Positions 42,170 through 64,000 of a DNA stretch of 64,000 nt are shown in pieces. The stretch is taken from assembly GCA_949751835.1 (NCBI GenBank), contig CATKHK010000125.1, forward strand, positions 42,227 through 106,226. The letters run 5' to 3'. This stretch comes from Blepharisma japonicum (lineage: Eukaryota; Ciliophora; Heterotrichea; Heterotrichida; Blepharismidae). Under the pieces are notes generated by a model. It was not told the origin of the DNA. It did not search any database and saw nothing but the letters and a program-made list of their open reading frames with translations. Both the position numbers and the translations under genes were made by a program. The stretch's first letter is position 1; the number at the start of each line of letters is the position of its first letter.

Positions 42170-42315
42170 AGACATTACCTCAAAATCTCTAAGTGCTTCT
42201 AATTCATTAAACACAAGATAAATAGTCAAAACTTCTTTAAAAGTAATTTCTCAAATATCTCAATGAGCAAAAAATGGATATTTATTAAATATGGATTTTT
42301 GAATATGTCAGCCAT
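42170..42315 (-). pseudogene. RBR relic A, N-terminal piece only
   Basis: Begins MADIFK and retains the YLVFNELEAL segment in a shifted frame, then ends; RING, IBR and membrane parts are gone. It closes the array on the TERT side. Confidence 0.7.
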
Positions 42316-42403
42316 TTTAAATACTAAATAAATCATGAAAATTGAAAAAATATTTCTAAAATGCAGCATTATATAAAATCGAATTAAATCGTAATTTTAA
42401 AGT

Positions 42404-43582
42404 CTAAAAAGTCACATATTCAACAGGTCTCATATAATCTGGATTTTGGCTTCTCTTTATAATAAAAATTATTTTTATAATAATCATACAGAATCCTGCT
42501 ATAGTGCATATGATAAGACACATTAAAGCCACGCAAGCTGTGATAGGGAATAATGGGATCGCTATAAACCCATTAATAATTTTTACAATAATATTTTCTG
42601 TAAAATTTTCAATCATTTTATTAAGACAAACAATTGTAAAAACATACGTACATCCAATATAAACAAAAGGAGTTAAAACAAAAGTAAAAATAAAAATGCA
42701 TAAATTGATAAATATTTGTCCAATTGTGCATTTTCTTCTTGGAGTTCCATCTTGTGAATGTACAATGCAAAAAACTGCAAAAAAGAAAGGGGTAATTGGT
42801 ATACAAAATATCAGCAAAAAAATCATAGATCACTTTGGATTTCTTTTTTGCATCATTCTTACTTTACAAATTTCATAATGTGTAGGATTATACTTTTCCC
42901 CACAAAGCCAGCATCATTCATACTTGCAAACTGTGCAGGTCATATGATCACATCCTTCATTTTTCTGTACTCTTCTGGTACAGTTCGGACAAAATTTTAC
43001 CCCATTTTCCTTTGATCATTTATCTAAAATATAATCCGTTTGTCCTTTGCAAGCAAGACCATCATGTCAAGCTTCAGAGCAATAATAGCAATAATTATAC
43101 TCACATTTATTGCAAACCAGTCTTTGCTTTTTCATTGAGCCAGTATCATACCCTCCACAATCGGCTACAGGGCATCATCTCAAATTAGGATTTCTATTTA
43201 ACTCTTCTATTGCTTTGAATTTTTTATATTTTTCAAAAAATTCAGGTGTCAAATAAGCTTGAACAATATCTATTGGAATTTCTGCTTTGCATGTGTGCTG
43301 TGGACAAGGCATTTTACTAACCTGTAAGTCTTGGATGCGTAAGGTAATATAAGTTGTTATACATGAATTGCAAAATTTATGAGAACACTCAGGGATAAAA
43401 ACTTGATTGACTTCGTTTAGGGCTGCATCACAGATAGGGCAGAGCTCTTTTTGATCATTTTCAAATGCAATCGAAACTGGAAAATCTGCAATATTTAATC
43501 TTAGTGTGCGAACATAACCGAAGTCATGATCTAAAGAGTGCGCTTCTTCGTCTTCCTGAGGTGCTTGAGAAACCTTAGACAT
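42404..43582 (-). CDS. RBR E3 ubiquitin ligase with C-terminal membrane domain, copy A
   Basis: A 392-residue protein with five or more TGA codons read as Trp. A variable N-terminus (1-45) precedes RING1 from Cys48 (CPIC..CSHKFCNSC..CPQHTC), the IBR (about 136-175, WCPVADCGGYD..CNKCEYNYCYYC) and RING2 (KFCPNCTRRVQKNEGCDHMTC..CWLCG). Cys211 in EGCDHM sits at the position of the catalytic thioester cysteine of parkin-type ligases. Then come three or so hydrophobic spans (about 253-275, 287-318, 330-372) and a charged tail ending YVTF. Such tail-anchored RBR proteins (like RNF144/RNF19) ubiquitinate partners at membranes. It is the array member nearest TERT; its N-terminus is of the HDFGYVRTL type. 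Confidence 0.92.
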
Positions 43583-43604
43583 TTTGAAACTAATAAAAGT
43601 TAGG

Positions 43605-43632
43605 AAATTATAATACCCTTCAGTTTTTATAT
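43605..43632 (-). promoter_or_regulatory. Conserved upstream block of the RBR genes
   Basis: Starting about 23 bases upstream of the start codon lies a block of about 28 bases with core ACCCTTCAG (plus strand) flanked by TTATAAT and TTTTTATAT. It recurs upstream of all ten copies (for example 53587-53614, 63621-63648) while nearby sequence differs. On the coding strand it has TATAAAAA-like and TATTATAA elements, so it is a plausible core promoter or transcription start region. Confidence 0.5.
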
Positions 43633-43838
43633 CGAAAAATATAGAAAGAATAAGAATTTAGCATTAAAAAGAAATTAAAACTTATGAATAAGTGGAAGAA
43701 GAATGAAAATTAAAAAATAAAATAAAAAATCAATGCCTGCTTTGACTTCCAATTTTATTGAATTATTATAATCAATTGCTGTTTTGATTTTTATTTAATT
43801 TAATGTTTATAAAGCTATTAATTAGTGTTTATAAGGTC

Positions 43839-45034
43839 CTAAAATTTTGCATAATCATCCGCTGGTTTCATATAATCTGAATTGTAACATTTTTTAATAA
43901 TGAACGAAATCTTTATAAAAGCTCTATAAAATTCTTTAAATGCCATTCATATAACCGTAATTCCTATCGAATAAGCAAAGATAGGGATAATATAATTAAT
44001 AAAAGTCTATTAATCATTTTTATTAGGAATTTGGTAGTTTTAAAAGTCCCGGAAACATAATTTGTTTAGCCATGTATACCCACAGCAGCATATAAGCCCA
44101 ACGTATACAAATGAAGTCAAGCATAACGCTAAAATCAAAGTAGCTGAACAAATACATACTTTTAATAAATTATTTTTTTCTTGGGGAGCTATAAACATAT
44201 CGTAGGCAAAGTAAAATATAAAAAATAAAACAATTAGGATGCAAAAATGATCAACAATTCTTGCACTTATATTTTCATGATTCTTACTTTACAAAATCAT
44301 AATGTATAGCATGATACTTTTTCCACATATCCAGCATCACACATACTTTCAAACTGTACATATAATATAGTTGCATCCTTCAGCTTTTTTCACTCTTCGA
44401 GTACAAAATGGACAAATTTGATCCCATTTTCTTTTAACCAATTATCAAAAAATAATCTGTTTACATTTTGTAAGCAATACTCCCATGCCATGCTTCAGAG
44501 CAATAATAAAAAATTGTATCCACATTTATTGCAAATTAACTGTATTTTTTTGTGGAGCCAGTATCATGACCCTTGCATTCTGACAAATGGCACAATATCA
44601 AAATTAGGATTTCTTCTTTTATTTTAAATTTTTGGTATTTTTCAAAGAATTCAGGAATTAAAACTTTCAATTAGAACTTTAAACTTGCATGTATGCTGTG
44701 GACAAGGTATTTTACTAACTTGTGAATCCTTAATAAGTAAAATAATATATGCTTTTATCCAAGAATTGCAAAATTTGTGAAAGTAGGCAGGAGTAATGAG
44801 TTGGTCGATTTCATTGAGTTTTGCATCACAGATTGGGCATATCTTACAAAGCTTTTCTTCAAAAATGATTAGCGGCAAACTTAGTAGAAACTCAGCAATA
44901 AATCCAACAATAAGTGCTTCTAATTCATTAAACACAAGATAAATAGCCAAAGTTCCTTCAAAAGTCAATTCTCAAATATTACAATGAGTAAAAATGGATA
45001 TTTATTAAATATGGATTTTGAATATGTCAGCCAT
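43839..45034 (-). pseudogene. RBR relic B, near full length
   Basis: A second, diverged RBR gene that matches the family from the start (MADI, about 45034) to a C-terminal DDYAKF stop at 43839, but with many stops and frameshifts. The RING1 segment (CPICDAKLNEIDQLI..CPQHTCKF) stays open at 44651-44968. IBR cysteines are partly lost. The length still equals a full gene, so decay was by point changes and small indels. Confidence 0.85.
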
Positions 45035-45120
45035 TTTAAATACTAAATAAATCATGAAAATTAAAAAATTTCTAAATATAGCATTATATATAAAATCGAA
45101 TTAAATTTCAATTTTAAAGT

Positions 45121-46296
45121 CTAAAAAGTCACATAATCAATATATCCCATATAATTTGGATTTCTGTTTTTCTTAATAATAAAATAAATTTTTATAATAA
45201 GAAAATAGAATCCTCCTATAGTATATATAATGGGTAAAATCACAGCTACGCATGCCATAATAGGGTATAGTGGAATCGCTATAAATCCATTAATAACTTT
45301 TACGATAAATTTGTCTGTAAACCTTTCACTTATTTCATTAAGACACAATACTGTAAAAACATATATTCCTCCAATATAAATTAAAGGAGTTAAAACAAAA
45401 GTAAAAATAAAAATACCGAAAAGTATAAAAATTTTTCAAATTGCGCGTAATCTTCTTGGAATTCTATCATACAAACGAATACAGCAAAAGCCTGCCATAT
45501 AGAAAGGAGTAATTGGTATAAAAAATATATGACCTAAAATAAGCCATCATTCTGGATTCTTTTCTTCTATGGCTCTGGCTTTACAAATATTATTATGAGT
45601 AGGATTATACTTTTCCCCACAAAGCCAGCATCATTCATACTTGCAAACTATGCAGGTCATATGATCACATCCTTCATTTTTCTGTACTCTTCTGATACAG
45701 TTCGGACAAAATTTTACCCCATTTTCCTTTGATCATTTATCTAAAATATAATCCGTTTGTCCTTTACAAGCAAGACCATCATGTCAAGCTTCAGAGCAAT
45801 AGTAGCAATAATTATACTTACATTTATTGCAAACCAGTCTTTGTTTTTTCATTGAGCCAGTATCATACCCTCCACAATCTGCTACAGGGCATCATCTCAA
45901 ATTAGGATTTCTATTTAACTCTTCTATTGCTTTGAATTTTTTATATTTTTCAAAAAATTCAGGTGTCAAATTAGCTTGAACAATATCTATTGGAATTTCT
46001 GCTTTGCATGTGTGCTGTGGACAAGGCATTTTACTAACCTGTAAGTCTTGGATGCGTAAGGTAATATAAGTTGTTATACATAAATTGCAAAATTTATGAG
46101 AACATTCAGGGATAAAAACTTGATTGACTTCGTTTAGGACTGCATCACAGATAGGACAGAGCTCTTTTTGTGCATTTTCAAATGCAATAGAAACTGAATT
46201 ACCTGGAAAATCTGGTGTTAATGCACGGATAGTAGCCTCAAGATCGAAAGAAAACGCTTCATCGTATTCTTGCGGATTTGGTAAAACCTTAGCCAT
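45121..46296 (-). CDS. RBR E3 ligase with membrane domain, copy B
   Basis: A 391-residue intact paralogue. RING1, IBR and RING2 cysteines including the catalytic Cys in EGCDHMTC are kept. The N-terminus is of the second type (FSFDLEATIRALTPDFPGNS). The tail ends GYIDYVTF. The Trp opening the IBR is TGA, as in copy A, whereas copies C to J have TGG there. The membrane part contains VLTPLIYIGGIYVFTVLCLN. An upstream in-frame ATG at 46332 exists, but the MAKVLP start agrees with the other copies and with the conserved upstream block. Confidence 0.92.
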
Positions 46297-46555
46297 TTTG
46301 AAACTAATAAAAGTTAGGAAATTATAATACACTTCAGTTTTTATATCGAAAAATATCGAAAGAATAAGAATTTAGCATTAAAAAGAAATTAAAACTTATG
46401 AGTAAGTGGAATAAGAATGAAAATTAAAAAATAAAATAAAAAATCAATGCCTGCTTTGACTTCCAATTTTATTGAATTACTATTATTATCAATTGTTGTT
46501 TTGATTTTTATTTAATTTAATGTTTATAACGCTATTAATTAGTGTTTATAAGGTC

Positions 46556-47772
46556 CTAAAATTTTGCATAATCATCCGCTGGTTTCATATAATCTGGATT
46601 GTAACATTTTTTAATAATGAACGAAATCTTTATAAAAGCTCTATAAAATTCTTTAAATGCCATTCATATAACCATAATTCCTATCGAATAAGCAAAGATA
46701 GGAATAATATAATTGATAAAAGTCAATTAATCATTTTTATTAGGAAATTTGGTAGTTTTAAAAGTCCTGTAAACATAATTTGTTTAGCCATGTATACCCA
46801 CAGCAGCATATAAGCCCAACATATACAAATGGAGTCAAGCATAATGCAAAAAAACAAAATAGCTGAATAAATACATACTTCTAATAAATTATTTTTTTCT
46901 TGGAGAGCGATAAACAGCACATAGGCAAATGAAAATGTAAAAAATGAAACAATTAGGATGCAAAAATGATCAACAATTCTTGCATTATATTTTGCATGAT
47001 TCTAACTTTACAAAATCATAAATGTATAGGATGATACTTTTTCTACATATCAGCATCACTTATAATCATAATGTATAGCATGATACTTTTTCCACATATC
47101 CAGCGTCACTCATACTTGCAAACTGTACATGTCATATGGTCGCATCCTTCAGCTTTTTTCATTCTTCGAGTACAAAATTGACAAAATTGATCCCATTTTC
47201 TTTTAACCAATTATCAAAAAATAATCTGTTTGCGTTTTGCAAGCAATACTCCCATGCCATATTTCAGAGCAATAGTAAAAAATTGTATCCACATTTATTG
47301 CAAATTAATTGTCATTTTTTTATGGAGCCAGTATCATGACCCTTGCATTCTGGCAAAGGGCACAATATCAAAATTAGGATTTCTGTTTAGTTCTTCTATT
47401 ATTTTAAATTTTGGTATTTTTCAAAGAATTCAGGAGTTAAAACTTTCAATTAGAACTTTAAACTTGCATGTATGCTGTGGACAAGGTATTTTACTAACTT
47501 GTGAATCCTTAACGAGTAAAGTAATACATGCGTTTATACAAGAATTGAGAAATTTGTGAAAGTAGGCAGGAGCAATGAATTGATTGACTTCATTGAGTTT
47601 TGCATCACAGATTGGGCACATCTAGCAAGGCTTTTCTTCAAAAATGATTAAGTGCTTCTAATTCATTAAACACAAGATAAATAGCCAAAGTTCCTTCAAA
47701 AGTCATTTCTCAAATATTTCAATGAGTAAAAATGGATATTTATTAAATATGGATTTTGAATATGTCAGTCAT
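46556..47772 (-). pseudogene. RBR relic C, near full length
   Basis: Same second gene as relic B, with start region at 47772 (MTD instead of MAD) and a C-terminal stop at 46556. A RING1 fragment (CPICDAKLNEVNQFIAPAYF) is open at 47430-47621. Frameshifts and stops elsewhere. A segment near 47000-47090 is locally duplicated (two versions of the TCATAATGTATAG motif). Confidence 0.85.
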
Positions 47773-47856
47773 TTTAAATACTAAATAAATCATGAAAATT
47801 AAAAAATTTCTAAATATAGCATTATATAAAATCGAATTAAATGTCAATTTTAATGT

Positions 47857-49032
47857 CTAAAAAGTTACATAATCAATATATCCCATATAATTTGGATTTC
47901 TGTTTCTCTTAATAATAAAATAAATTTTTACAATAAGAAAATAGAATCCTACTATAGTAAATAGAATGGGTAATATCGCAGCTACACATGCCATAATAGG
48001 GTATAGTGGAATCGCTATAAATCCATTAATAACTTTTACGATAGATTTTTCTGTAAACCTTTCACTTATATTATTAAGACACAATACTGTAAAAACATAT
48101 ATTCCTCCAATATAAATTAAAGGAGTTAAAACAAAAGTAAAAATAAAAATGCATAAATTGATAAATATTTGTCCAATTGTGCATTTTCTTCTTGGAGTTC
48201 TATCATACAAACGAATACAGCAAAAGCATGCAAAATAGAAAGGAGTAATTGGTATAAAAAATAACAGTAATAAAACAAGCCATCACTCTGGATTATTTTC
48301 TTTCATTCCTCTTGCTTTACAAATATTATTATGAGTCGGATGATACTTTTCCCCACAAAGTCAGCATCATTCATACTTGCAAACTATGCATGTCATATGA
48401 TCACATCCTTCATTTTTCTGTACTCTTCTGGTACAGTTCGGACAAAATTTTACCCCGTTTTCCTTTGATCATTTATCTAAAATATAATCCGTTTGTCCTT
48501 TACAAGCAAGACCATCATGTCAAGCTTCAGAACAATAATAGCAATAATTATACTTACATTTATTGCAAATTAGTTTTTGCTTTTTCATTGAGCCAGTATC
48601 ATACCCTCCACAATCTGCTACAGGGCACCATCTCAAATGAGGATTTCTATTTAACTCTTCTATTGTTTTGAATTTTTTATATTTTTCAAAAAATTCAGGC
48701 GTTAAATTAGCTTGAACAATATCTATTGGAATTTCAGATTTGCATGTGTGCTGTGGACAGGGCATTTTACTAACCTGTAAGTCTTGGATACGTAATGTAA
48801 TATAAGTTGTTATACATAAATTGCAAAATTTGTGAGAACACTCAGGGATAAAAACTTGATTAACTTCGTTTAGGGCTGCATCACAGATAGGGCAGAGCTC
48901 TTTTGGATTAATTTCAAATGCAATCGCAACTGAATTACCTGAAAAATCTGGTGTTAATGCACGGATAGTAGCGTCAAGATCTAAAGAATGAGCTTCTTCG
49001 TCTTCTTGCAGATCTGGTCAAGCATAAGCCAT
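47857..49032 (-). CDS. RBR E3 ligase with membrane domain, copy C
   Basis: A 391-residue intact copy beginning MAYAWPDLQEDEEAHS, where a TGA codes Trp at residue 5; other copies have a leucine or serine there. N-terminus of the DLDATIRALTPDF type. All zinc ligands of RING1, IBR and RING2 are present, with the catalytic Cys in EGCDHMTC. RING2 has two adjacent TGA-encoded Trp (YEWCWLC). The tail ends GYIDYVTF, and the membrane part is nearly the same as in copies B and D. Confidence 0.92.
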
Positions 49033-49286
49033 TTTGAAACTCATAAAAGTTAGTAAATTATAATACCCTTCAGTTTTTATACAGAATAATATCGAAGAAT
49101 TAGAATTTAGCATTAAAAAGAAATTAGGACATATGAATAAGTTAAAGAAGAATGAAAATTAAAAAATAAAATAAAAAATCAATGTCTGCTTTGAATTCCA
49201 ATATTATTGAATTTTTATAATCAATTGTTGTTTTGATTTTTATTTAATTAAAGTTTATAAAGCTATTAATTAGTATTTATAAGGTC

Positions 49287-50140
49287 CTAAAATTTTGCAT
49301 AATCATCTACAGGTTTCATATAATCTGAATTGTAACATTTTTTAATAATGAACGAAATCTTTATAAAAGCTCTATAAAATTCCTTAAATTCATATAACCA
49401 TACTTTCTATCGAATAAGCAAAGATAGGGATAATATAATTGATAAACATCCATTTATCATTTTTATTAGGAAATTTGGTAGTTTTAACAGTCCCGAAAAC
49501 ATATACCCACAGCAGCATATAAGCCCAACATATACAAATGGAGTCAAGCATAATGTGAAAATCAAAGTAGCTGAATAAATACATACTTCTAATAAATTAT
49601 TTTTTTCTTGGAGAGCGATAAACAGCATGTAGGCAAAGGAAAATATAAAAAATAAAACAATTAGGATGCAAAAATGATCAACAATTCTTGCACTTATATT
49701 TTGCATGATTTTTACTTTACAAAATCATAATGTATATGATGATACTTTTTCCATACATCAGCATCACTTATAATCATAATGTATAGGATGATACTTTTTC
49801 AACATATCCAAAATCACTTATACTTTGAAACTGTACATGTCATATGGTCGCATCCTTCAGCTTTTTTCACTCTTCGAGTGCAAAATTGGCAAAATTTGAT
49901 CCCATTTTCTTTTACCCAATTATCAAAAAATACTTCAGAGCAATAGTAAAAAATTGTATCCACATTTATTGCAAATTAATTGTCTTTTTTTTGTGGAGCT
50001 AGTATCATAGCTCTTGTATTCTGGCAAAGGGCATCATATCTATTTAGGATTTCTGTTTAGTTCTTCTATTATTTTAAATTTTTGGTATTTTTAAAAGAAT
50101 TCAAAAGTTGAAACTGTCAATTGGAACTTCAAACTTGGAT
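49287..50140 (-). pseudogene. RBR relic D, lost its N-terminal half
   Basis: Retains the C-terminal membrane part (open at 49407-49706, with LDSICICWAYMLLWVYVFG) and a broken RING2 and IBR, but everything upstream of the RING1 end was removed by the deletion that also cut copy D. A direct repeat of the TCATAATGTATA segment (49725-49800) resembles that in relic C. Confidence 0.8.
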
Positions 50141-51172
50141 GTATAGTGGAATCGCTATAAATCCATTAATAACTTTTACGATAGATTTTTCTGTAAACCT
50201 TTCACTTATATTATTAAGACACAATACTGTAAAAACATATATTCCTCCAATATAAATTAAAGGAGTTAAAACAAAAGTAAAAATAAAAATGCATAAATTG
50301 ATAAATATTTGCCCAATTGTGCATTTTCTTCTTGGAGTTCTATCATACAAACGATAACAGCAAAAGCATGCCATATAGAAAGGAGTAATTTGTATAAAAA
50401 ATAACAGTAATAAAATAAGCCATCACTCTGGATTATTTTCTTTCATTCCTCTTGCTTTACAAATATTATTATGAGTCGGATGATACTTTTCCCCACAAAG
50501 TCAGCATCATTCATACTTGCAAACTATGCAGGTCATATGATCACATCCTTCATTTTTCTGTACTCTTCTGGTACAGTTCGGACAAAATTTTACCCCGTTT
50601 TCCTTTGATCATTTATCTACAATATAATCCGTTTGTCCTTTACAAGCAAGACCATCATGTCAAGCTTCAGAGCAATAGTAGCAATAATTATACTTACATT
50701 TATTGCAAATTAGTCTTTGCTTTTTCATTGAGCCAGTATCATACCCTCCACAATCTGCTACAGGGCACCATCTCAAATGAGGATTTCTATTTAACTCTTC
50801 TATTGCTTTAAATTTTTTATATTTTTCAAAAAATTCAGGCGTTAAATAAGCTTGAACAATATCTATTGGAATTTCAGCTTTGCATGTGTGCTGTGGACAA
50901 GGCATTTTACTAACCTGTAAGTCTTGGATTCGTAAGGTAATATAAGTTTTTATACATGAATTGCAAAATTTGTGAGAACACTCAGGGATAAAAACTTGAT
51001 TAACTTCGTTTAGAACTGTATCACAGATAGGGCAGAGCTCTTTTGGATTAATTTCAAATGCAATAGAAACTAAATTACCCGGAAAATCTGGTGTTAATGC
51101 ACGGATAGTAGCGTCAAGATCTAAAGAATGCGCTTCTTCGCCTTCTTGCGGATTTGGTAAAACCTTAGCCAT
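50069..51172 (-). CDS. RBR E3 ligase, copy D, 3' end replaced by relic sequence
   Basis: A 367-residue chimeric reading frame. RING1, IBR, RING2 (catalytic Cys in EGCDHMTC) and the first two membrane spans are intact. After NGFIAIPLY the sequence jumps, at about 50140, into relic D and continues as IQVWSSNWQFQLLNSFKNTK.. to a TAA at 50069. The last membrane span and the conserved YVTF tail are therefore missing. The protein may still be a ligase but with changed topology. N-terminus of the DLDATIRALTPDF type. Start at the MAKVLP codon; an in-frame ATG 24 bases upstream is less likely. Confidence 0.75.
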
Positions 51173-51374
51173 TTTGAAACTAATAAAATTTGGCAAATTA
51201 TAATATCCTTCAGCTTATATATAGAATAATATAGAAAGATTAAGAATTTTAGCATTAAAAAGAAATCAAATAATTATCTTATGAATAAGTCCAACTTTTA
51301 GTTCTAATACTTATGGATTATATAACCAATTGTTGCTTTCATTTTTTATTTAATTTAATATTTATCAAAACTAC

Positions 51375-52300
51375 GGTTTTTAATAATGAACGAAATCTTT
51401 ATAAAAGCTCTAGAAAATCCTTTAAATGTCATTCATAGAAGCATAATTACTACCGCACAAGCAAAGACAGGGGATAATACGATTGATAAAAGCCCATTAA
51501 TCATTTTATTAGAAATCTCTTAGTTTTAAAAGCTCGGAGACAGAATTTGTTTATTCATATATATCCACAGCAACATATAAACCCAACATATACGAATGGA
51601 GTCAAGCATAGCTCAAAAATCAATGTAGCTGGATAAATACATACTTTTGATACCTTATTCTTACTTGGAGAGCGATAGACAGCACGCATGCAAAGGAAAA
51701 TATAAAAAAATGGAGCAATTAGGATGAAAAATAAAATTAACTAATTATTTATAGTTTTAACATTTTTTTATAATATATATTATTTTAACAAAATTTAAGA
51801 ATAAGGATTGCTGATCATTGTGGATTCAATTTTTCCATGATTCTTATTTTACAAATATCATAATGTACAGAATGGTACATTTCCCCACATAGCCAGAATC
51901 ATTCATATTTGCAAACTGGGCATGTCATATGGTTACATCCTTCGGCTTTTTGGACTCTTCGAGTATAAAATGGGCTAATTTGATCCCATTTTCTTTTGAC
52001 CAACTATCAAAAACATAATCTGTTTGCGCTTTGCAATGAAGACCCTCATGCCATGCTTCAGAGCAATAGTAGCAATAATTGTATCCACAATTATTGCAAA
52101 TTAATTGTCTTTTTTTTGTGGAGCCAGTACCCTCACTGTCAGTAAAGGGCACCATCAAATTAGGATTCCTATTTACTTTAAGTGATTCTAATTCATTAGA
52201 CATAAATAGCCAAAGTTTCTTCAAAAGTCAATTCTCAAATATTACAATGAGCAAAAATGAATATTTATTAAATATGGAATTTTGAATATGTTATCTATTT
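51375..52300 (-). pseudogene. RBR relic E, RING1 deleted
   Basis: Retains IBR and RING2-like parts in an open stretch (51925-52224, with LICNNCGYNYCYYCSEAWHE) but lacks RING1. The C-terminal DDY..F end is missing. The start codon seen in other relics has changed (CAT to TAT on the plus strand at about 52295). Confidence 0.8.
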
Positions 52301-52382
52301 TAAATACTAAATAAATCATGAAAATTAAAAAATTTCTAAAATATAACATTAATAAAATCGAATTAAATCGTAATTTTAAAGT

Positions 52383-53561
52383 CTAAAAATTCGCATAATC
52401 AAGATATCTCATATAATCTGGATTTCTGTTTCTCTTAATAATAAAATCAATTCTTAGAATAAGCCAATAGAATCCTATTATAGTAGCGAAAATGGGAAAA
52501 ATCACAGCTACACATGCCATGATAGGGTATAGTGGAATCGCTATAAATCCATTAATAACTTTTACGATAAATTTTTCTGTAAACCTTTTACTTATATTAT
52601 TAAGACATTCAACTGTAAAAACATATATTCCTCCAATATAAATTAAAGGAGTAAAAACAAAAGTAAAAATAAAAATACCGAAAAGTATAAAAATTTTTCA
52701 AATTGTCCGTATTCTTCTTGGAATTCTATCATACAAACGAATACAGCAAAAGCCTGCCATATAGAAAGGAGTAATTGGTATAAAAAATGTCAGCAATAAA
52801 ATCCTAGATCACTCTGGATACTTTTCTTGCATGGCTATTGCTTTACAAATATCATAATGATCAGGATGATACTTTTCCCCACAAAGTCAGCATCATTCAT
52901 ATTTGCAAACTGGGCATGTCATATGATCACATCCTTCAATTTTCTGTACTCTTCTGGTACAGTTCGGACAAAATTTTACCCCGTTTTCCTTTGATCATTT
53001 ATCTAAAATATAATCCGTTTGTCCTTTACAAGCAAGACCATCATGCCAAGCTTCAGAACAATAGTAGCAATAATTATACTCACATTTATTGCAAACAAGT
53101 CTTTGTTTTTTCATTGATCCAGTATCATACCCTCCACAATCTGCTACAGGGCACCATCTCAAATTAGGATTTCTATTTAGCTCTTCTATTATTTTGAATT
53201 TTTTATATTTTTCAAAAAATTCAGGTGTTAAATAAGCTTGAACAATATCTATTGGAATTTCATCTTTGCATGTGTGCTGTGGACAAGGCATTTTACTAAC
53301 TTGTAAGTCTTGGATGCGTAAGGTAATATAAGTTTTTATACATAAATTGCAAAATTTGTGATAGCATTCAGGGATTAAAACTTGATTGACTTCGTTTAGG
53401 ACTGCATCACAGATTGGACAGAGCTCTTTTTGATTATTTTCAAATGCAATCGAAACTGGAAAATCTGGAAATTTTAATTTTAATGTGGGGACATAACCGA
53501 AGTCATAATCTAAAGAATGCGCTTCTTCGTCTTCTTGCTGATCTGGTAAAACCTTAGCCAT
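52383..53561 (-). CDS. RBR E3 ligase with membrane domain, copy E
   Basis: A 392-residue intact copy with the HDFGYV-type N-terminus (LDYDFGYVPTLKLKFPDFP). RING1 has CYHKFCNLC in place of the usual CSHKFCNSC, and a Lys to Asp change in the link to the IBR (TCKDEIPID). RING2 reads KIEGCDHMTCPVC with the catalytic Cys kept. The codon for Trp in SEAWHD is TGG here but TGA in copies A to D. Tail RYLDYANF. Confidence 0.92.
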
Positions 53562-53815
53562 TTTGAAACTAATAAAAGTTAGGAAATTATAATACCCTTC
53601 AGTTTTTATATAGAAAAATATAGAAAGAATAAGAATTTAGCATTAAAAAGAAATTAAAACTTATGAATAAGTGGAATAAGAATGAAAATTAAAATAAAAA
53701 TAAAAAATCAATGCCTGCTTTGAATTTCAATATTATTGAATTAATATAATCAATTGTTGTTTTGATTTTTATTTAATTTAATGTTTATAAACTATTAATT
53801 AGTGTTGATAAGGTC

Positions 53816-54159
53816 CTAAAAATTTGCATAATCATCCATAGGTTCCATAGATTGTTACGTTTTTTAATGATGAACGAAATCTTTATAAAAGCTCTTTAAA
53901 TGTCATTCATATAACCATAATTACTACCGAACAAGCAAAGATAGGGATATAATAATTAATAAAAGTCTATTAATCATTTTTATTAGAAAATTTGGTTGTT
54001 TTAAAAGCCTGGAAGCATAAGTATGACATGAGGATTAAGTGCTTCTAATTCTTTAAACACAAGATAAATAGTCAAAGTTTCTTCAAAGTCAATTCTCAAG
54101 TATTGCAATGAGCAAAAATAGATATTTATTAAATATTGATTTTTGATTATATCAGCCAT
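53816..54159 (-). pseudogene. RBR relic F, core deleted
   Basis: Only the start region (MADI..YLVFKELEAL) and the C-terminal membrane end remain, joined by a deletion of about 850 bases relative to relic B. Confidence 0.8.
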
Positions 54160-54241
54160 TTTAAATTCTAAATAAATCATGAAAATTAAAATTCTAAAAT
54201 ATAGCATTATATAAAATCGAATTAAATCGTAACTTTAAAGT

Positions 54242-55420: not shown

Positions 55421-55676
55421 TTTGAAACTAATAAAATATGCAAATTATAATACCCTTCAGTTTTCATATAGAAAAATATAGAAAAAATAAGAATTTAGCA
55501 TTAAAAAGAAATTAAAACTTATGAATAAGTGGAATAAGAATGAAAATTAAAAAATAAAATAAAAAATCAATGCCTATTTTGAATTCCAATATTATTGAAT
55601 TATTATAATCAATTGTTGTTTTTATTTTTTATTTAATTTAATGCTTATAAAGCTATTAATTAATGTTTATAAGGTC

Positions 55677-55897
55677 CTAAATATTTGCATAATCATTCAT
55701 AGGTTTCATATAATTAGGATTGTTACGTTTTTAACAATGAACGAAATCTCTATAAAAGCTCTTTTAATGTCGTTCATATAACTATAATTCTTTAAACACA
55801 AGATAAATAGCCAAAGTTTTTTCAAAGTCAATTCTCAAGTATTGCAATGAGCAAAAATAGATATTTATTAAATATTGATTTTTGATTATGTCACCAT
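55677..55897 (-). pseudogene. RBR relic G, shortest internal relic
   Basis: About 220 bases: a start region fused to the last part of the membrane end. The deletion is larger than in relics F and H but has similar borders, suggesting stepwise shrinkage. Confidence 0.75.
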
Positions 55898-55985
55898 TTT
55901 AAAATATTAAATAAATCATGTAAATTAAAAAAAAATATTTCTACAATTCAGGGTTATATAAAATCGAAATAAATCTTATTTAAGT

Positions 55986-57164
55986 CTAAAAATTCGCATA
56001 ATCAAGATAGCTCATATAATCTGGATTTCTGTATTTCTTAATAATAAAATGAATTTTTATAATAAGCCCATAGAATCCTATTATAGTAACGAAAATGGGT
56101 GAAATCACAGCTACGCATGCCATGATAGGGTATAGTGGAATCGCTATAAATCCATTGATAACTTTTACGATAAATTTTTTTGTAAACCTTTCACTTATTT
56201 TATTAAGTCAAAATACTGTAAAAACATATATTCCTACAATATATGCTAAAGGAGTTAAAACAAAAGTAAAAATAGAAATACCTAAAAGTATAAAAATTTT
56301 TCAAATTGTGCGATTTCTTCTTGGAATTCTATAATACAAACTAAAAAAGCATAAACCTGCAAAATAGAATGGAGTGATTGGTATAAAAAATAGCAGCAAT
56401 AAAATTTTCCATCATTCTGGATTCTCCTCTTGCATGATTCTTGCTTTACAAATATCATAATGAGTAGGATGATACTTTTCCCCACAAAGCCAGCATCATT
56501 CATACTTGCAAACTGGGCATGTCATATGATCGCATCCTGCATTTTTCTGTACTCTTCTGGTACAATTCGGACAAAATTTTACCCCATTTTCCTTTGATCA
56601 TTTATCTAAAATATAATCCGTTTGTCCTTTACAAGCAAGACCATCATGCCAGGCTTCAGAACAATAGTAGCAATAATTATACTCACATTTATTGCAAACC
56701 AGTCTTTGTTTTTTCATTGAGCCAGTATCATACCCTCCACAATCTGCTACAGGGCACCATCTCAAATTAGGATTTCTATTTAACTCTTCTATTATTTTGA
56801 ATTTTTTATATTTTTCAAAAAATTCAGGTGTCAAATAAGCTTGAACAATATCTATTGGAATTTCAGCTTTGCATGTATGCTGCGGGCAAGGCATTTTACT
56901 AACCTGTAAGTCTTGGATTCGTAAGATCATATAAGTTGTTATACATGAATTGCAAAATTTGTGAGAACATTCTGGAATAAAAACTTGATTGACTTCGTTT
57001 AGGACTGCATCACAGATAGGACAGAGCTCTTTTGGATTATTTTCAAATGCAATCGAAACTGGAACATCTTGAATTTTTAAACTTAGTGGGCGAACATAGC
57101 CGAAGTCATGATCTAAAGAATGCACTTCTTCGTCTTCCTGAAGTGCTGAAGAAACTTGGGCCAT
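55986..57164 (-). CDS. RBR E3 ligase with membrane domain, copy G
   Basis: A 392-residue intact copy (MAQVSSALQEDEEVHSLDHD). All three zinc modules complete; NAGCDHMTCPVC holds the catalytic Cys. RING1 is followed by YMILRIQ where most copies have YITLRIQ. The loop after the first membrane span carries RRNRTIWKI. Tail SYLDYANF. Closest by eye to copy F, including its shared membrane part (SLYYRIP). Confidence 0.92.
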
Positions 57165-57420
57165 TTTGAAACTAATAAAAGTTAGGAAAATATAATACCC
57201 TTCAGTTTTTATATAGAATAATATAGAAAGAATAAGAATTTTAGCATTAAAAAAAAATTAAAACTTATGAATAAGCGGAATAAGAATGAAAATTAAAAAT
57301 TAAAATATAAAATCAATGCCTACTTTGAATTCCAATATTAATGAATTATTATAATCAATATTGTTTTGATTTTTATTTAATTTAATGTTTATAAAGCTAT
57401 TAATTAATGTTGAAAAGGTC

Positions 57421-57751
57421 CTAAAAATTTGCATAATCATCCATAGGTGTCACATAATCTCGATTGTTACTTTTTTAATAATAAACGAAATCTTTATAAA
57501 AGCTCTTTAAATGTCGTTCATATAACTATAATTCCTACCGAACAAGCAAGGATAGGGATAATATAATTGATGAAAGTCTATAAATCATTTTTATTAGGAA
57601 ATTTGGTAGTTTTAAAAGCCCGGAAACATAAGTGCTTCTAATTCTTTAAACACAAGATAAATAGCCAAAGTTTCTTCCTAGTCAATTCTCAAGTATTGCA
57701 ATGAGCAAAAATAGATATTTATTAAATATTGATTTTCGATTATGTCACCAT
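57421..57751 (-). pseudogene. RBR relic H, core deleted
   Basis: Start region and C-terminal membrane end only, like relic F. The DDY..F stop is still recognisable at 57421. Confidence 0.78.
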
Positions 57752-57836
57752 TTTAAAATATTAAATAAATCATGAAAATTAAAAAATATTTCTATAATTC
57801 AGGGTTATATAAAATCGAAATAAATCTTATTTAAGT

Positions 57837-59015
57837 CTAAAAATTCGCATAATCAAGATAGCTCATATAATCTGGATTTCTGTATTTCTTAATAATAAAA
57901 TAAATTCTTACAATAAGCGCACAGAATCCTCCTATGGTAGCAAAAATGGGTGAAATCACAGCTACGCATGCCATGATAGGGTATAGTGGAATCGCAATAA
58001 ATCCATTAATAACTTTTATGATAAATTTTTTGGTAAACCTTTTACTTATTTCATTAAGACCAAATACTGTAAAAACATATATTCCTACAATATATGCTAA
58101 AGGAGTTAAAACAAAAGTAAAAATAAAAGCACCTAAAAGTATAAAAATTTTTCAAATTGTGCGTATTCTTCTTGGAATTCTATCATACAAACGAATACAG
58201 CAAAAACCTGCAAAATAGAAAGGAGTAATTGGTATAAAAAATATCAGCAATAAAATTATTGATCACTCTAGGTTCATTTCTTGCATGATTCTAGCTTTGC
58301 AAATATTATAATGAGAAGGATGATACTTTTTCCCACAAAGCCAACATCATTCATACTTGCAAACTGGGCATGTCATATGGTCACATCCTGCATTTTTCTG
58401 TACTCTTCTGGTACAGTTCGGACAAAATTTTACCCCGTTTTCCTTTGATCATTTATCTAAAATATAATCCGTTTGTCCTTTACAAGCAAGTCCATCATGT
58501 CAAGCTTCAGAGCAATAGTAGCAATAATTATACTCACATTTATTGCAAACCAGTCTTTGTTTTTTCATTGAGCCAGTATCATACCCTCCACAATCTGCTA
58601 CAGGGCACCATCTCAAATTAGGATTTCTATTTAACTCTTCTATTGCTTTAAATTTTTTATATTTTTCAAAAAATTCAGGTGTCAAATAAGCTTGAACAAT
58701 ATCTATTGGAATTTCAGCTTTGCATGTGTGCTGTGGACAAGACATTTTACTAACTTGTAAGTCTTGGATTCGTAAGGTGGTATAAGTTTTTATACATGAA
58801 TTGCAAAATTTGTGAGAGCATTCAGGGATTAAAACTTGATTGACCTCGTTTAGGACTACATCACAGATAGGACAGAACTCTTTTGGATCATTTTCAAATG
58901 AAATCGAAACTTGAAAATTGTGAATTTTTAATTTTAGTGGGCGAACATAATAGTAGTCAGGATCTAAAGAATGTACTTCTTCGTCTTCTTTCGGATCTCG
59001 TAAAACCCTAGACAT
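57837..59015 (-). CDS. RBR E3 ligase with membrane domain, copy H
   Basis: A 392-residue intact copy with the most altered N-terminus (MSRVLRDPKEDEEVHSLDPDYYYVRPLKLKIHNFQV) and several changes near RING1 (EFCPICDVVL). RING2 has NAGCDHMTCPVC and CWLCGKKY. The membrane part includes GAFIFTFVLTPLAYIVGIYVF. Tail SYLDYANF. Upstream of the start the spacer to the next relic is shorter than in other units because a block ending in AAAAATAAAAAATCAATG is joined closer. Confidence 0.92.
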
Positions 59016-59186
59016 TTTGAACCTTATAAAATATGGAAATTATAATACCCTTCAGTTTTTATATAGAAAAATAAAAAATCAATGCCTGCTTTGAATTCCA
59101 ATATTATTGAAATATTATAATCAATTCTTGTTTTGATTTTTATTTAATTTAATGTTTATAAAGCTATTAATTAATGTTTATAAGGT

Positions 59187-60305
59187 CCCAAAAATTTGCA
59201 TAATCATCCATAGGTGTAATATAATCCGGATTGTTACTTTTTAATAATAAACGAAATATTTATAAATCCTCTATAAATCTCTTTAAATGCCATTCATATA
59301 ATTACTACCGAAGAAGCAAAGATAGGGATCATATAATTGATGAAAGTCCATAAATCATTTTTATTAGGAAATTTTGTAATTTTAAAAGCCCCGGAAACAT
59401 AATTTGTTTAGCCATATATACCCACAGCAGCATATAAGCCTAGGGGTCAAGCATAACGCGAAAATCAAAGTAGCTGGATAAATACATACTTTTAATAAAT
59501 TATTTTTACTTGAAAGCGATAAACAGAACGTAGGCAAAGGAAAATATAAAATCCCTGCAAAATGATCGACAATTCTTGCACTTATATTTTGCATGATTCT
59601 TACTTTACAAAATCATAACGTATAGGATGATATTTTTCCCACATATCCAGCATCACTCATACATGCAAACTGTGCATATCATATGGTCGCATCCTTCAGC
59701 TTTTTTCCTCTTCAAGTACAAAATGGACAAAATTTGATCCCATTTTCTTTTAAATAATTATCAAAAAATAATCTGTTTGTGTTTTGTAAGCAATTCTCCC
59801 ATGCCATAATTCAGAGCAATAGTAGAAATTCTATCTACATTTATTGCAAATTAATTGTCTTTTTTTATGAAGCAAGTATCATGACCCTTGCATTATGGCA
59901 AAGGGTACCATATCAAATTAGGATTTCTGCTTAGTTATTATTTTAAATTTTTGGTATTTTCAAAGTATTCAGGAGTTAAAATTGTTAATTGGAACTTCAA
60001 ACTTACATGTATGCTGTGGACAAGGTATTTTAATAACTTGTATTTTTAACGAGTAAAGTAATATATGCTTTATCCAAGAATTGCAAAATTTGTGAAAGTA
60101 GGCAGGAGCAATGAGTTGATTGACTTCATTGAATTTGCATCACAGATCGGGCACATCTCATAAGGCTTTTCTTCAAAAATGATTAAGTGCTTCTAATACA
60201 TTAAAAACAAGATAAATAGTCAAAGTTTCTTCAAAAGTCAATTCTCAAATATTGATTTGAGCAAATGGATATTTATTAAATATGGATTCTTGAATATTTA
60301 GCCAT
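59187..60305 (-). pseudogene. RBR relic I, near full length
   Basis: Long relic with recognisable start, RING1 (ending CPQHT.K), IBR, RING2 and membrane end, all with scattered stops and frameshifts. The usual terminal stop codon is changed (CCTAAA to CCCAAA on the plus strand at about 59187). Confidence 0.82.
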
Positions 60306-60388
60306 TTTAAATACTAAATGAATCATGAAAATTAAAAAATTTCTAAAATATAGCATTATGTAAAATCGAATTAAATAGTAATTTAAGT

Positions 60389-61567
60389 CTAAATAGTCAC
60401 ATAATCAGCAGGTCTCATATAATATGGATTTCTGTTTCTCATAATAATAATAAAATAAATTTTTATCATAAGCCCATAGAATCCTTCTATAGTAGCCCAA
60501 AAGGGGAAAATCACAGCTACGCATGCCATGATAGGGTATAGTGGAATCGCAATAAATCCATTAATAACTTTTACGATAAATTTTTTGGTAAACCTTTTAC
60601 TTATTGTATTAAGACCAAATACTGTAAAAACATATATTCCTACAATATAAACTAAAGGAGTTAAAACAAAAGTAAAAATAAAAACAACTAAAAGTATAAA
60701 AATTTTTCAAATTGTGCGTATTCTTCTTGGAATTCTATCATACATACATAAACAGCAAAAACCTGCAACAAAGAAAGGGGTAATTGGTATAGCAAAAATA
60801 CCGAATAAAATCACTAATCACTCTGGATTCTTTTCTTGCATGATTCTTACTTTACAAATATTATAATGAGAAGGATGATACTTTTCTCCACAAAGCCAGC
60901 ATCATTCATACTTGCAAACTGGGCATGCCATATGGTCACATCCTGCATTTTTCTGCACTCTTCTGATACAGTTCGGACAAAATTTTACCCCGTTTTCCTT
61001 TGATCATTTATCTAAAATATAATCCATTTGTCCTTTACAAGCAAGACCATCATGCCAAGCTTCAGAGCAATAGTAGCAATAATTATACTCACATTTATTG
61101 CAAATCAGTCTTTGTTTTTTCATTGAGCCAGTATCATACCCTCCACAATCTGCTACAGGGCACCATCTCAAATTAGGATTTCTATTTAGCTTTTCTATTA
61201 TTTTGAATTTTTTATATTTTTCAAAAAATTCAGGCGTTAAATTAGCTCGAACAATATCTATTGGAATTTCAGCTTTGCATGTATGCTGTGGACAAGGTAT
61301 TTTACTAACCTGTAAGTCTTGGATTCGTGAGGTAATATAATTTGTTATACATAAATTGCAAAATTTGTGAGAACATTCAGGGATTAAAACTTGATTAACT
61401 TCGTTCAAGACTATATCGCAGATAGGACAGAGCTCTTTTTGATAATTTTCAAATGCAATAGAATGTGGAACAATTGGAAAATCTGGTGTTAATGGACGGA
61501 TAGTAGCATCAAGATCTAAAGAATGCGCTTCTTCGTCTTCTTGCGGATCTGGTAAAACCTTAGCCAT
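60389..61567 (-). CDS. RBR E3 ligase with membrane domain, copy I
   Basis: A 392-residue intact copy with the DLDATIRPLTPDFPIVPH N-terminus shared only with copy J. RING2 reads NAGCDHMACPVC, so Thr becomes Ala next to a zinc Cys while the catalytic Cys is kept. The last membrane segment has an extra Ile (YFIIIMRNRNPYYM), and the tail is RPADYVTI, different from all others. Confidence 0.92.
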
Positions 61568-61786
61568 TTTGAAACTAATAAAATATGCAAATTATAATAC
61601 CCTTCAGTTTTTATAAAGTTAATAGAGAAAGAATAAGAATTTTAGCATTAAAAAGAAATAAAATAATTAGCTTATGAATAAGTCCATTAAATTCTAATAC
61701 TTATGGAGTATTATAATTAATTGTTGTTTTCATTTTTTATTTAATTTAATATTTATAAAAACTATTAATTAGTGTTTATAAGAGTC

Positions 61787-62338
61787 CTAAAATTCTACAT
61801 AGTCATCCATAGGCTTCATATAATCTGGATTACTACGATTTTTAATAATGAACGAAATCTTTATAAAGCTCTAGAAAATCCTTTAAATGTCATTCATATC
61901 AGCATAATTACTACAGCACAAGCAAAGACAGGGGATAATACAATTGATAAAAGCCCATTAATCATTCTTATTAGAAATCTCTTAGTTTTAAAAGCTGGAG
62001 ACAGAATTTGTTTAGTCATATATATCCACAGCAACATATAAACCCAACATATACGAATGGAGTCAAGCATAGTGCGAAAATCAATGTAGCTGGATAAATA
62101 CATACTTTTGATACCTTATTTTTACTTGGAGAGCGATAAGCAGCACGCATGCGAAGGAAAATATAAAAAAATGGAGCAATTAGGATTCAAAATAAAATTA
62201 AGTATCGCAAAATATTAGGTGCTTATAATTCATTAAACACAAGATAAATAGTCAAGGTTCTTTCAAAAGTCAATTCTCAAGTATTGCAATGAGCAAAAAT
62301 GGATATTTATTAAATATGGATTTTGAATATTCAGCCAT
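61787..62338 (-). pseudogene. RBR relic J, membrane end plus start
   Basis: Retains the membrane end (open at 61894-62103, with LDSIRICWVYMLLWIYM) and the start region, with the RING-IBR core deleted. Shares sequence details with relics E and K (for example TAGAAAATCCTTTAAATGTC), so these three form a subgroup. Confidence 0.8.
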
Positions 62339-62421
62339 TTAAATATTAAATAAATCATGAAAATTAAAAATTTCTAAAATATAGCATTATATAAAATCGA
62401 ATTAAATCGCAATTTTAAAGT

Positions 62422-63597
62422 CTAAAAAGTCACATAATCCATATATCTCATATAATTTGGATTTCTGTTTCTCTTAATATTAAAATCAATTTTTACAATA
62501 AGAAAATAAAATCCTGCTATAGTAAATAGAATTGGTGAAATCACAGCTACGCATGCCATGATAGGGTATAGTGGAATCGCTATAAATCAATTAATAACTT
62601 TTACAATAATTTTTTTGGTAAACCTTTTACTTATTTCATTAAGACAAAATACTGTAAAAACATATATTCCTCCAATATAAACTAAAGGAGTTAAAACAAA
62701 AGTAAAAATAAAAGCAGTTAAAAATATAAAAATTTTTCAAATTGAGCGTATTCTTCTTGGAATTGTATCATACAAATATCAACAGCACAAAAATGCAACA
62801 AAGAAAGGAATAATTGGTATAATAAATATAAAAAACAAAATCATAGATCACTCTGGATTCTTTTCTTGCATGATTCTTGCTTTACAAATATCATAATGAG
62901 TAGGATGATACTTTTTCCCACAAAGCCAGCATCATTCATACTTACAAACTGGGCATGTCATATGATCGCATCCTGCATTTTTCTGTACTCTTCTGGTACA
63001 GTTCGGACAAAATTTTACCCCATTTTCCTTTGATCATTTATCTAAAATATAATCCATTTGTCCTTTACAAGCAAGACCATCATGTCAAGCTTCAGAACAA
63101 TAGTAGCAATAATTATACTCACATTTATTGCAAATCAGTCTTTGTTTTTTCATTGAGCCAGTATCATACCCTCCACAATCTGCTACAGGGCACCATCTCA
63201 AATTAGGATTTCTATTTAACCTTTCTATTATTTTGAATTTTTTATATTTTTCAAAAAATTCAGGTGTTAAATTAGCTTGAACAATATCTATTGGAATTTC
63301 AGCTTTGCATGTATGCTGTGGACAAGGCATTTTACTAATCTGTAAGTCTTGGATGCGTGAGGTAATATAATTTGTTATACATGAATTGCAAAATTTGTGA
63401 GAACATTCAGGGATTAAAACTTGATTAACTTCGTTCAAGACTAAATCGCAGATAGGGCAGAGCTCTTTTGGATTAATTTCAAATGCGATAGAATGTGGAA
63501 CAATTGGAAAATCTGGTGTTAATGGACGGATAGTAGCATCAAGATCTAAAGAATGCGCTTCTTCGTCTTCTTGCGGATCTGGTAAAACCTTAGCCAT
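62422..63597 (-). CDS. RBR E3 ligase with membrane domain, copy J
   Basis: A 391-residue intact copy, almost identical to copy I over the first 60 residues. RING1, IBR and RING2 complete with the catalytic Cys in NAGCDHMTCPVC. The first membrane span differs from others (ILFFIFIIPIIPFFVAFLCCW). A TGA-encoded Trp replaces Gly in VINWFIAIPLY. Tail RYMDYVTF. Confidence 0.92.
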
Positions 63598-63821
63598 TTT
63601 GAACCTTATAAAATATGAGCAAATTATAATACCCTTCAGTTTTTATATAGAATAATATAGAAAGAATAAGAACCTTAGCATTAAAAAGAAATCAAATAAT
63701 TAGCTTATGAATAAGTCACCTTTGAATCTTAATAATTATGAATTATTATAATTTATTGTTGTTTTCATTTTTAATTTAGTTTAATATTTATAAAAACTAT
63801 TAATTAGTGTTTATAAGAGTC

Positions 63822-64000
63822 CTAAAAATCTACATAGTCATCCATAGGCTTCATATAATCTGGATTACTACGATTTTTAATAATGAACGAAATCTTTATA
63901 AAAGCTCTAGAAAATCCTTTAAATGTCATTCATATCAGCATAATTACTACCGCACAAGCAAAGACAGGGGATAATACAATTGATAAAAGCCCATTAATCA
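63822..64000 (-). pseudogene. RBR relic K, cut by the window edge
   Basis: C-terminal membrane end of the next relic, nearly identical to relic J, showing that the array continues beyond the window. Confidence 0.75.

What the first reader, a model, noticed from the sequence alone, without database searches (positions are those of the whole stretch)
42170..64000. Tandem array of membrane-anchored RBR ubiquitin ligases
Ten intact or near-intact genes in 21 kb encode RING1-IBR-RING2 plus a multi-span membrane end, all with the catalytic cysteine kept. RBR ligases are usually few and dispersed in a genome. Here the catalytic core is nearly constant while the N-terminal 60 residues and the membrane tails vary, as expected if the copies differ in partner or membrane and not in chemistry. 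Seen: array, domains, variation. Inferred: functional diversification.
Basis: partly seen in the sequence, partly recalled or inferred. Interest (0 to 1): 0.8.

Follow-up and report, generated by a model that had tools for sequence, protein, structure and literature searches.

The report
Tandem array of membrane ubiquitin ligases
A single-celled ciliate, probably Blepharisma, carries a row of about a dozen closely related ubiquitin-tagging enzymes whose working core is kept constant while their membrane-embedded tails change fast, as if each copy were being tuned to a different partner in the membrane.

Summary
Ten RBR genes lie on the minus strand at 42404-63597, read with TGA=W; all ten keep the RING2 cysteine. 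(1) The unit is a gene pair, B then A: A is open in 12 of 12 units (g4 lacks its tail end), B is intact in 1 of 12. (2) The window ends at its contig's end; the array appears to continue, across a break of about 126 bases, into contig C73. (3) The genome has about 85 IBR places, some in other clusters, and plants have tandem RBR genes, so "few and dispersed" fails. (4) Omega is 0.21 for the core; N-terminus and tail average near 1, yet about 20% of tail sites sit near 4.6. That class survives a coarse recombination null (80 of 80 simulations below observed) and site-rate variation (p=3e-5), but no contiguous tail segment averages significantly above 1. Best reading: functional membrane-anchored RBR ligases with diversifying tail helices. 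Expression, activity and targets are untested.

The parts
42404..43582 (-). A copy g1, 392 aa RBR + membrane tail
45121..46296 (-). A copy g2, 391 aa
47857..49032 (-). A copy g3, 391 aa from the start shared with the other copies (the ORF runs on upstream to 49113)
50069..51172 (-). A copy g4, 367 aa; departs from the others after about residue 345 and ends in out-of-frame B-type DNA
52383..53561 (-). A copy g5, 392 aa
54242..55420 (-). A copy g6, 392 aa (numbering reference; RING1 from 48, IBR 117-178, RING2 from 198, Cys211, tail 246-392)
55986..57164 (-). A copy g7, 392 aa
57837..59015 (-). A copy g8, 392 aa
60389..61567 (-). A copy g9, 392 aa
62422..63597 (-). A copy g10, 391 aa
43842..44959 (-). 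B relic b1 (matches residues 12-397 of intact B; stops and frame changes)
46559..47657 (-). B relic b2 (residues 39-397; stops and frame changes)
49290..50117 (-). B relic b3 (from residue 113 on; stops)
51319..52179 (-). B relic b4 (from residue 131 on; stops and frame changes)
53851..54035 (-). B relic b5, short C-terminal remnant
55683..55762 (-). B relic b6, short C-terminal remnant
57424..57628 (-). B relic b7, short C-terminal remnant
59191..60199 (-). B relic b8 (residues 37-397; 7-14 stops depending on the alignment)
61790..62201 (-). B relic b9, only residues 260-397 in three frames, 82-100% identical to intact B
63825..64000 (-). B copy b10, last 58 residues, 100% identical to intact B; cut by the contig end, rest probably on contig C73
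42182..42403 (-). 3' flank of g1, 86-89% identical to the flanks of other units; outer edge of the array
38912..41692 (+). Convergent neighbour, telomerase reverse transcriptase; marks the array's outer border

Best explanation
A head-to-tail array of at least 12 B-A units in a Blepharisma-like somatic genome. The A genes encode membrane-anchored RBR E3 ubiquitin ligases of a family with a multi-span C-terminal tail. Mechanism: RING1 takes ubiquitin-loaded E2; ubiquitin passes to Cys211 of RING2 and then to a target; the tail holds the enzyme in a membrane and its helices help to choose partner or target there. Duplication by unequal exchange plus gene conversion spreads the unit; selection removes changes in the core and favours change at a subset of tail sites, most of them in the first and last hydrophobic helices, while the B partner was lost in all but one unit. 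Shown: array, domains, kept cysteine, open A frames, broken B frames, region-specific constraint, a class of fast tail sites under codon models. Inferred: ubiquitin transfer, membrane insertion, intramembrane partner choice, function of the diversity, 12 as the count (rests on the C125-C73 link).
For: Domains and RING2 Cys. A open in 12 of 12 units, full length in 11; B intact in 1 of 12; Fisher p=1e-4, units not independent. Core omega 0.21, 2dlnL 115 against 1. No stops among 157 single-base tail variants where 5.0 are expected (P=0.007; the copies were chosen as open frames and g4 was masked after 345), with hydropathy kept better than chance (P=0.005). Tail M2a vs M1a 2dlnL 67.8, 20% of sites at omega 4.6; M8 vs M8a 76.4; holds with separate trees for 240-287 (p=1.4e-4) and 341-392 (p=1.3e-8), not for 288-340 (p=0.08). 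11 of the 15 sites called at 0.9 lie in 250-276 or 347-374. Null with three recombining segments: 80 of 80 simulations at or below 10.7, observed 58.3 in the same pipeline; first batch 8 of 8 finished at or below 12.4. Still significant with gamma site rates, 2dlnL 20.6, p=3.3e-5. In 354-371 variability follows a helical period (diversity p<0.001, site omega p=0.002). Precedents: MARCH1 needs a surface on one face of its substrate's transmembrane helix (PMC8319528, abstract and passages); the RNF144A TM domain regulates activity (PMC12317654, passages).
Against: Mean omega of the tail is 0.86 and no contiguous tail segment is significantly above 1 (TM3 1.27, p=0.36; end 3.0, p=0.11; loop 3.3, p=0.17), so the positive-selection claim rests on site models. 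Paralogs with gene conversion (10 of 66 pairs with long shared tracts at p<0.01) and many multi-base codon differences (29% of differing tail codon pairs against 12% in the core) can inflate such models; the null covered only three segments. Site-rate variation cuts 2dlnL from 67.8 to 20.6. Helical periodicity is weaker over whole helices (350-376: diversity p=0.027, site omega p=0.07; 250-276: p=0.002 and 0.07), the best window is one of 46, and clustering of the called sites alone is borderline in TM3 (p=0.05-0.06) and absent in TM1 (p=0.37). The C41 trio shows no tail ratio above 1 (0.74). The structure prediction failed (mean pLDDT 43). For MARCH the authors leave open whether the contact is direct, and MIR2 needs no specific TM sequence. 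No expression data.
Confidence: 0.6

Rival explanations
1. Dosage or stress-response expansion: the copies are functionally equivalent. Tails and N-termini only need to be hydrophobic or flexible, drift near neutrality and are shuffled by gene conversion; the fast sites are a by-product of relaxed constraint, mutation hot spots, multi-base changes and conversion.
For: Mean omega of tail 0.86 and N-terminus 0.77, neither different from 1; no contiguous tail segment significantly above 1; hydropathy of tail changes conserved; conversion tracts in 10 of 66 pairs; C41 trio tail ratio 0.74; tandem RBR copies in plants are mostly weakly expressed (PMC2904391, passages); long tandem arrays are known in ciliates, e.g. 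17 strict LRR inparalogs in Tetrahymena (PMC6564038, passages).
Against: On the whole tail, a mixture of constrained and neutral sites fits worse than one with a class above 1 with the whole tree, its own tree, M8 against M8a, and gamma site rates; two of three tail segments with their own trees agree, the third does not (p=0.08). About half the tail sites have omega near 0.15-0.2, so an average near 1 needs sites above 1.
Confidence: 0.25
2. Self-association insulation: as reported for RNF144A, the tail helices self-associate to activate the ligase, and the variable face diverges so that paralogs pair only with themselves.
For: One glycine (363 in g6) is the only fully conserved tail column in the alignment of 19 tail-aligned ORFs and three array copies; TM self-association regulates RNF144A (a passage and a title in the reference list of PMC12317654; the original paper PMC4645615 is not held).
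Against: No test of oligomerisation was possible. The aligned tails have three or four predicted helices, unlike RNF144A (single helix recalled).
Confidence: 0.1
3. Assembly artefact or dead array: copies are collapsed or expanded by the assembler, or none is expressed.
For: The window ends at a contig break inside the repeat; expression could not be tested.
Against: Copies differ by 6-16% in coding DNA; the tree largely follows physical order (g2+g3+g4, g6+g7+g8, g9-g12); frames are open and core synonymous changes are in excess (58 seen, 27 expected), while the neighbouring B copies decayed.
Confidence: 0.05

Closest known systems
Ariadne-type RBR ligases (ARIH1/ARIH2)
   Same: RING1-IBR-RING2 of g6 aligns through with ARIH2 and ARIH1 (E 2e-19 and 1e-18), including the RING2 cysteine region
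   Different: No Ariadne-domain row among the Pfam matches; a hydrophobic multi-span tail stands in its place
RNF144A/B, RNF19A/B and RNF217 (human RBRs with hydrophobic regions)
   Same: RBR with hydrophobic region; listed together in a review, which adds that membrane insertion sites were not determined (PMC4021871, passages)
   Different: Tail here is about 147 residues with three hydrophobic stretches; no sequence relation to those tails was tested; RNF144's single and RNF19's double TM are recalled
Tandem RBR clusters of plants (Arabidopsis, rice)
   Same: Recent tandem duplication of RBR genes (PMC2904391, abstract and passages)
   Different: 'transmembrane' occurs 0 times in that paper's held text; a constant core with a fast membrane tail is not described in the passages seen
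Tandem gene clusters of ciliates (Tetrahymena LRR genes)
   Same: Lineage-specific tandem expansion of similar or larger size: 17 strict inparalogs, 65 with gaps allowed (PMC6564038, passages)
   Different: LRR genes, not ubiquitin ligases ('ubiquitin' 0 times in that held text)
MARCH / MIR membrane E3s
   Same: Works-like comparison: a membrane E3 whose target is recognised through a transmembrane helix face (MARCH1-CD86, PMC8319528, abstract and passages)
   Different: RING-CH chemistry, not RBR; different family; direct contact not proven there

Membership tests
RBR E3 ubiquitin ligases | RING1, IBR and RING2 in this order | tested here: met
   IBR over cut-off in 10 of 10; RING-type matches at about 46-100 in 10 of 10, zf-C3HC4 over its own cut-off in 2 of 10; alignment of g6 through all three with ARIH1/ARIH2
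RBR E3 ubiquitin ligases | Catalytic cysteine in RING2 (GC-x-x-M-x-C context) | tested here: met
   C211 invariant in 10 of 10 window copies and present in g11, g12 and intact B; aligned to the ARIH2 RING2. That this is the catalytic one is recalled from ARIH1/parkin work
RBR E3 ubiquitin ligases | Ubiquitin thioester and transfer in vitro | not testable with these tools
   needs bench work
Ariadne subfamily | C-terminal Ariadne domain | tested here: not met
   no such row among Pfam matches up to E=1 in 10 of 10 proteins (that Pfam holds an Ariadne model is recalled); a hydrophobic tail is in its place
RNF144 subfamily | Single C-terminal transmembrane helix (recalled) | tested here: not met
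   three separated hydrophobic stretches in the nine full-length window copies and in g11, g12 and intact B; hydropathy only
MARCH family | RING-CH (RINGv) domain | tested here: not met
   no RINGv row among Pfam matches up to E=1 in 10 of 10
Blepharisma-like heterotrich somatic genome | UGA=Trp, CCCTAACA telomeres, compact AT-rich genome | tested here: met
   4-7 in-frame TGA per A gene; telomere pattern 77+91 times, reversed control 0+0, listed plus-strand places within the first 425 bases of their contigs and those of C17 within about 110 of its end (ends of C4-C7 and C38 not checked); features as in PMC9942806 passages. Species not identified; 45.2 Mb here against 41 Mb for B. stoltei

The most novel reading that the evidence does not exclude
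A eukaryotic repertoire of membrane ubiquitin ligases in which specificity is carried by transmembrane helix faces under diversifying selection: one nearly invariant catalytic engine copied at least 12 times, each copy with a different intramembrane recognition surface. It would be an arms-race or self/non-self recognition family built on E3 tails instead of extracellular domains.
Probability: 0.22. Interest if true: 0.78.

Novelty: new variant of a known kind. Interest (0 to 1): 0.52.

Why it matters
How membrane E3 ligases select membrane substrates is called less well understood even for MARCH (PMC8319528, passage). Here is a natural mutagenesis series: 11 full-length copies with an almost fixed catalytic core and a tail in which invariant and hypervariable positions alternate. 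If the fast sites are recognition sites, comparing copies would map an intramembrane specificity code. The paired B gene, broken in 11 of 12 units, gives an internal control for selection on A.

Tried and rejected
Structure prediction of g6 from the ten window proteins: mean pLDDT 43, pTM 0.20, too poor to search; no fold search was run. The prediction tool's list of allowed sources does not name loci from the fetch from genomes, so only window proteins were used. A scan of viral contigs for relatives found none by tblastn (96 pattern matches, 0 confirmed). A first regular expression for RING2 caught only 14 ORFs and was replaced by BLAST of ORFs. The first recombination-null batch finished only 8 of 40 planned replicates in time; the second ran 80 of 80. 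Considered and rejected: an N-terminus under positive selection; ten as the full count; an array of identical assembler copies. A clean age gradient of B relics along the array: not borne out, b4 is also close to intact B.

Paper searches that showed nothing on this array or on RBR expansion in ciliates in their listings: 'RBR + ubiquitin ligase + ciliate' (14 papers, all listed, judged by title and start of abstract); 'Blepharisma + ubiquitin ligase' (1 paper, on stop codons and Q-rich motifs); 'Stentor / ubiquitin ligase / gene family expansion / Tetrahymena', at least 3 terms (18 papers, 10 listed); 'IBR domain / ciliate / expansion / Tetrahymena', at least 3 terms (632 papers, 10 listed, 'IBR domain' 0 times in each of the ten). 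In the Blepharisma somatic genome paper 'ubiquitin' and 'tandem' occur 0 times in the held main text. These searches cover only the open library and main texts.
Full report
SETTING. The window is bases 42227-106226 of contig C125 in an unnamed 45.2 Mb genome of 224 contigs. TGA must be read as an amino acid, tryptophan by position (4-7 TGA per A gene). The telomere repeat CCCTAACA (three in a row) occurs 77+91 times, 0 in the reversed control; the listed plus-strand places lie at contig starts. The genome paper of Blepharisma stoltei reports UGA=Trp, 15-16 bp introns, CCCTAACA telomeres and 41 Mb (PMC9942806, passages). A Blepharisma-like heterotrich somatic genome is therefore likely; the species is not established.

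OBSERVATION. Ten in-register repeats were found and ten open frames on the minus strand. IBR passes its cut-off in 10 of 10; RING-type families match at the N end in 10 of 10, with zf-C3HC4 over its own cut-off in 2 of 10. With g6 as the query, the nearest solved structures are ARIH2 and ARIH1. The RING2 cysteine C211 is invariant in 10 of 10. Hydropathy shows three separated hydrophobic tail stretches in the nine full-length copies; g4 lacks the last. Coding DNA identity between copies is 84-94%.

UNIT STRUCTURE. tblastn with the intact B protein (C73:228987-230180, 397 aa) shows B-derived DNA between every two neighbouring A genes, on the same strand. In transcription order the array reads B0-g12-b11-g11-b10-g10-b9-...-b1-g1, and ends convergently against a telomerase reverse transcriptase gene (Telomerase_RBD E 8e-24). 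A is open in 12 of 12 units. g4 lost its last roughly 47 residues and ends in out-of-frame B-type DNA. B is intact in 1 of 12; the other 11 have stops, frame changes or large deletions, three of them (b5-b7) reduced to short C-terminal remnants. This count takes the two contig-end pieces as one copy, b10. Fisher's test on full-length A (11 of 12) against intact B (1 of 12) gives p=1e-4. The units are related by duplication, so this is an indication and not an exact probability.

ARRAY END. C125 ends at the window's last base. Its last B piece matches intact B residues 340-397 at 100%. Contig C73 ends in a B piece covering residues 130-297 at 95%, with one in-frame TAA and with flank DNA of an A gene in place of the N-terminal part. 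Read in the opposite direction, C73 continues the array in the same orientation with g11 and g12, then intact B0, then unrelated genes. If both ends are the same B copy, 42 codons (about 126 bases) are missing between them. Extra units in the gap cannot be excluded.

GENOME CONTEXT. PF01485 gives 119 matches, a lower bound by the tool's own note. They merge to 85 places, 15 in the array (13 intact genes plus relics) and 70 outside. In the 36 loci searched, 48 ORFs of 150 aa or more are RBR-like by BLAST, some of them fragments; 19 align into the tail of g6 or B0, three of which are g11, g12 and B0. The ORF on C34 is the nearest relative outside the array (97% support with A+B; 43% identity). 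Other clusters: three tail-bearing copies on C41 and eight tail-less ORFs, perhaps seven genes, on C11. 32 further planned stretches could not be fetched, so the tail family is a lower bound. The claim that RBR genes are few and dispersed does not hold here, nor in plants (PMC2904391, abstract and passages). Tandem arrays of this size are known in ciliates for other genes: 17 strict LRR inparalogs in Tetrahymena pyriformis (PMC6564038, passages).

SELECTION. Counting method over 66 pairs: dN/dS is core 0.24, N-terminus 0.98, tail 1.07; against intact B the tail is 0.33, with synonymous sites near saturation (dS 1.6). Codon ML with TGA=W: core 0.21 (2dlnL 115 against 1), N-terminus 0.77 (p=0.28), tail 0.86 (p=0.29). 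Frame integrity, on copies that were chosen as open frames and with g4 masked after 345: 0 stops among 157 single-base tail variants, 5.0 expected, P=0.007; core 0 against 5.1, P=0.005; N-terminus 0 against 2.3, P=0.08. Tail changes conserve hydropathy (P=0.005). Site models on the tail: M2a over M1a 2dlnL 78.8 with the whole tree, 67.8 with its own tree and g4 left out, M8 over M8a 76.4. Separate trees: 240-287 p=1.4e-4, 288-340 p=0.08, 341-392 p=1.3e-8. N-terminus p=0.83. Null simulations with three recombining segments: 8 replicates, maximum 12.4, and 80 replicates, maximum 10.7, observed 58.3 in the same pipeline. With gamma-distributed overall site rates the gain falls to 20.6, p=3.3e-5. 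Against this: no contiguous segment has mean omega significantly above 1; multi-base codon differences are frequent (29% of differing tail codon pairs, 12% in the core); conversion is present (10 of 66 pairs at p<0.01); the C41 trio gives tail 0.74, core 0.34.

HELIX PATTERN. In 353-373 the residues at 355, 358, 359, 362, 366, 369 and 372 vary widely, while 360, 361, 363, 364, 371 and 373 are invariant in the 11 full-length copies. Variability has a helical period in 354-371 (diversity p<0.001, site omega p=0.002; best of 46 windows). For 350-376 the two values are 0.027 and 0.07, for 250-276 they are 0.002 and 0.07. Clustering of the called sites alone is borderline in TM3 (p=0.05-0.06) and absent in TM1 (p=0.37). 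Segment 328-346 is conserved (omega 0.26, p=0.002). Gly363 is the only tail column marked fully conserved in the alignment of 19 ORFs plus three array copies.

MECHANISM. Standard RBR chemistry is inferred from the domains and the kept cysteine. Membrane anchoring is inferred from hydropathy. Choice of partner through tail helices is the best inference from the fast sites, with MARCH1 as a works-like precedent (PMC8319528, abstract and passages; the authors leave direct contact open, and MIR2 needs no specific TM sequence) and RNF144A TM regulation as the rival precedent (PMC12317654, passages).

VERDICT. The array is real and its A genes are very probably under selection as working genes. The diversification claim is upgraded for the tail and not supported for the N-terminus. 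It is a new variant of a known kind: membrane RBR ligases with tandem expansion, here with an unusual contrast between a fixed engine and a fast membrane tail. Interest 0.52.

Noticed in passing
38912-41692: Telomerase reverse transcriptase gene (Telomerase_RBD, RVT_1, TEN below its cut-off) convergent with the array; 926 aa with 2 TGA codons.
   Followed up: partly
L015, L016 (C11:555000-574000): A second tandem cluster of eight RBR-like ORFs (perhaps seven genes) without hydrophobic tail; the RING2 motif found in five of the eight reads NCTHM.
   Followed up: no
L013 (C41:289000-298999): Three closely similar tail-bearing RBR genes in tandem; counting ratio tail 0.74, core 0.34, N-terminus 0.43.
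   Followed up: partly
31611-33794: RCC1 repeats and a Rab-GAP TBC domain in one 727 aa frame.
   Followed up: no
29036-31101: Two neighbouring methyltransferase-domain genes in the same orientation.
   Followed up: no
just upstream of each A start, e.g. 43583-43640: The block TGAAGGGTATTATAATTT lies upstream of 8 of 12 A genes exactly and of the other four with one mismatch, and is not seen before intact B; possible promoter or only shared descent.
   Followed up: no
51319-52179, 61790-64000 and the C73 end: B remnants b9-b11 near intact B are 82-100% identical to it, b4 63-85%, while b1-b3 and b8 give 30-50% in alignments that run through frame changes: hints at recent growth or conversion at one end, without a clean gradient.
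   Followed up: partly
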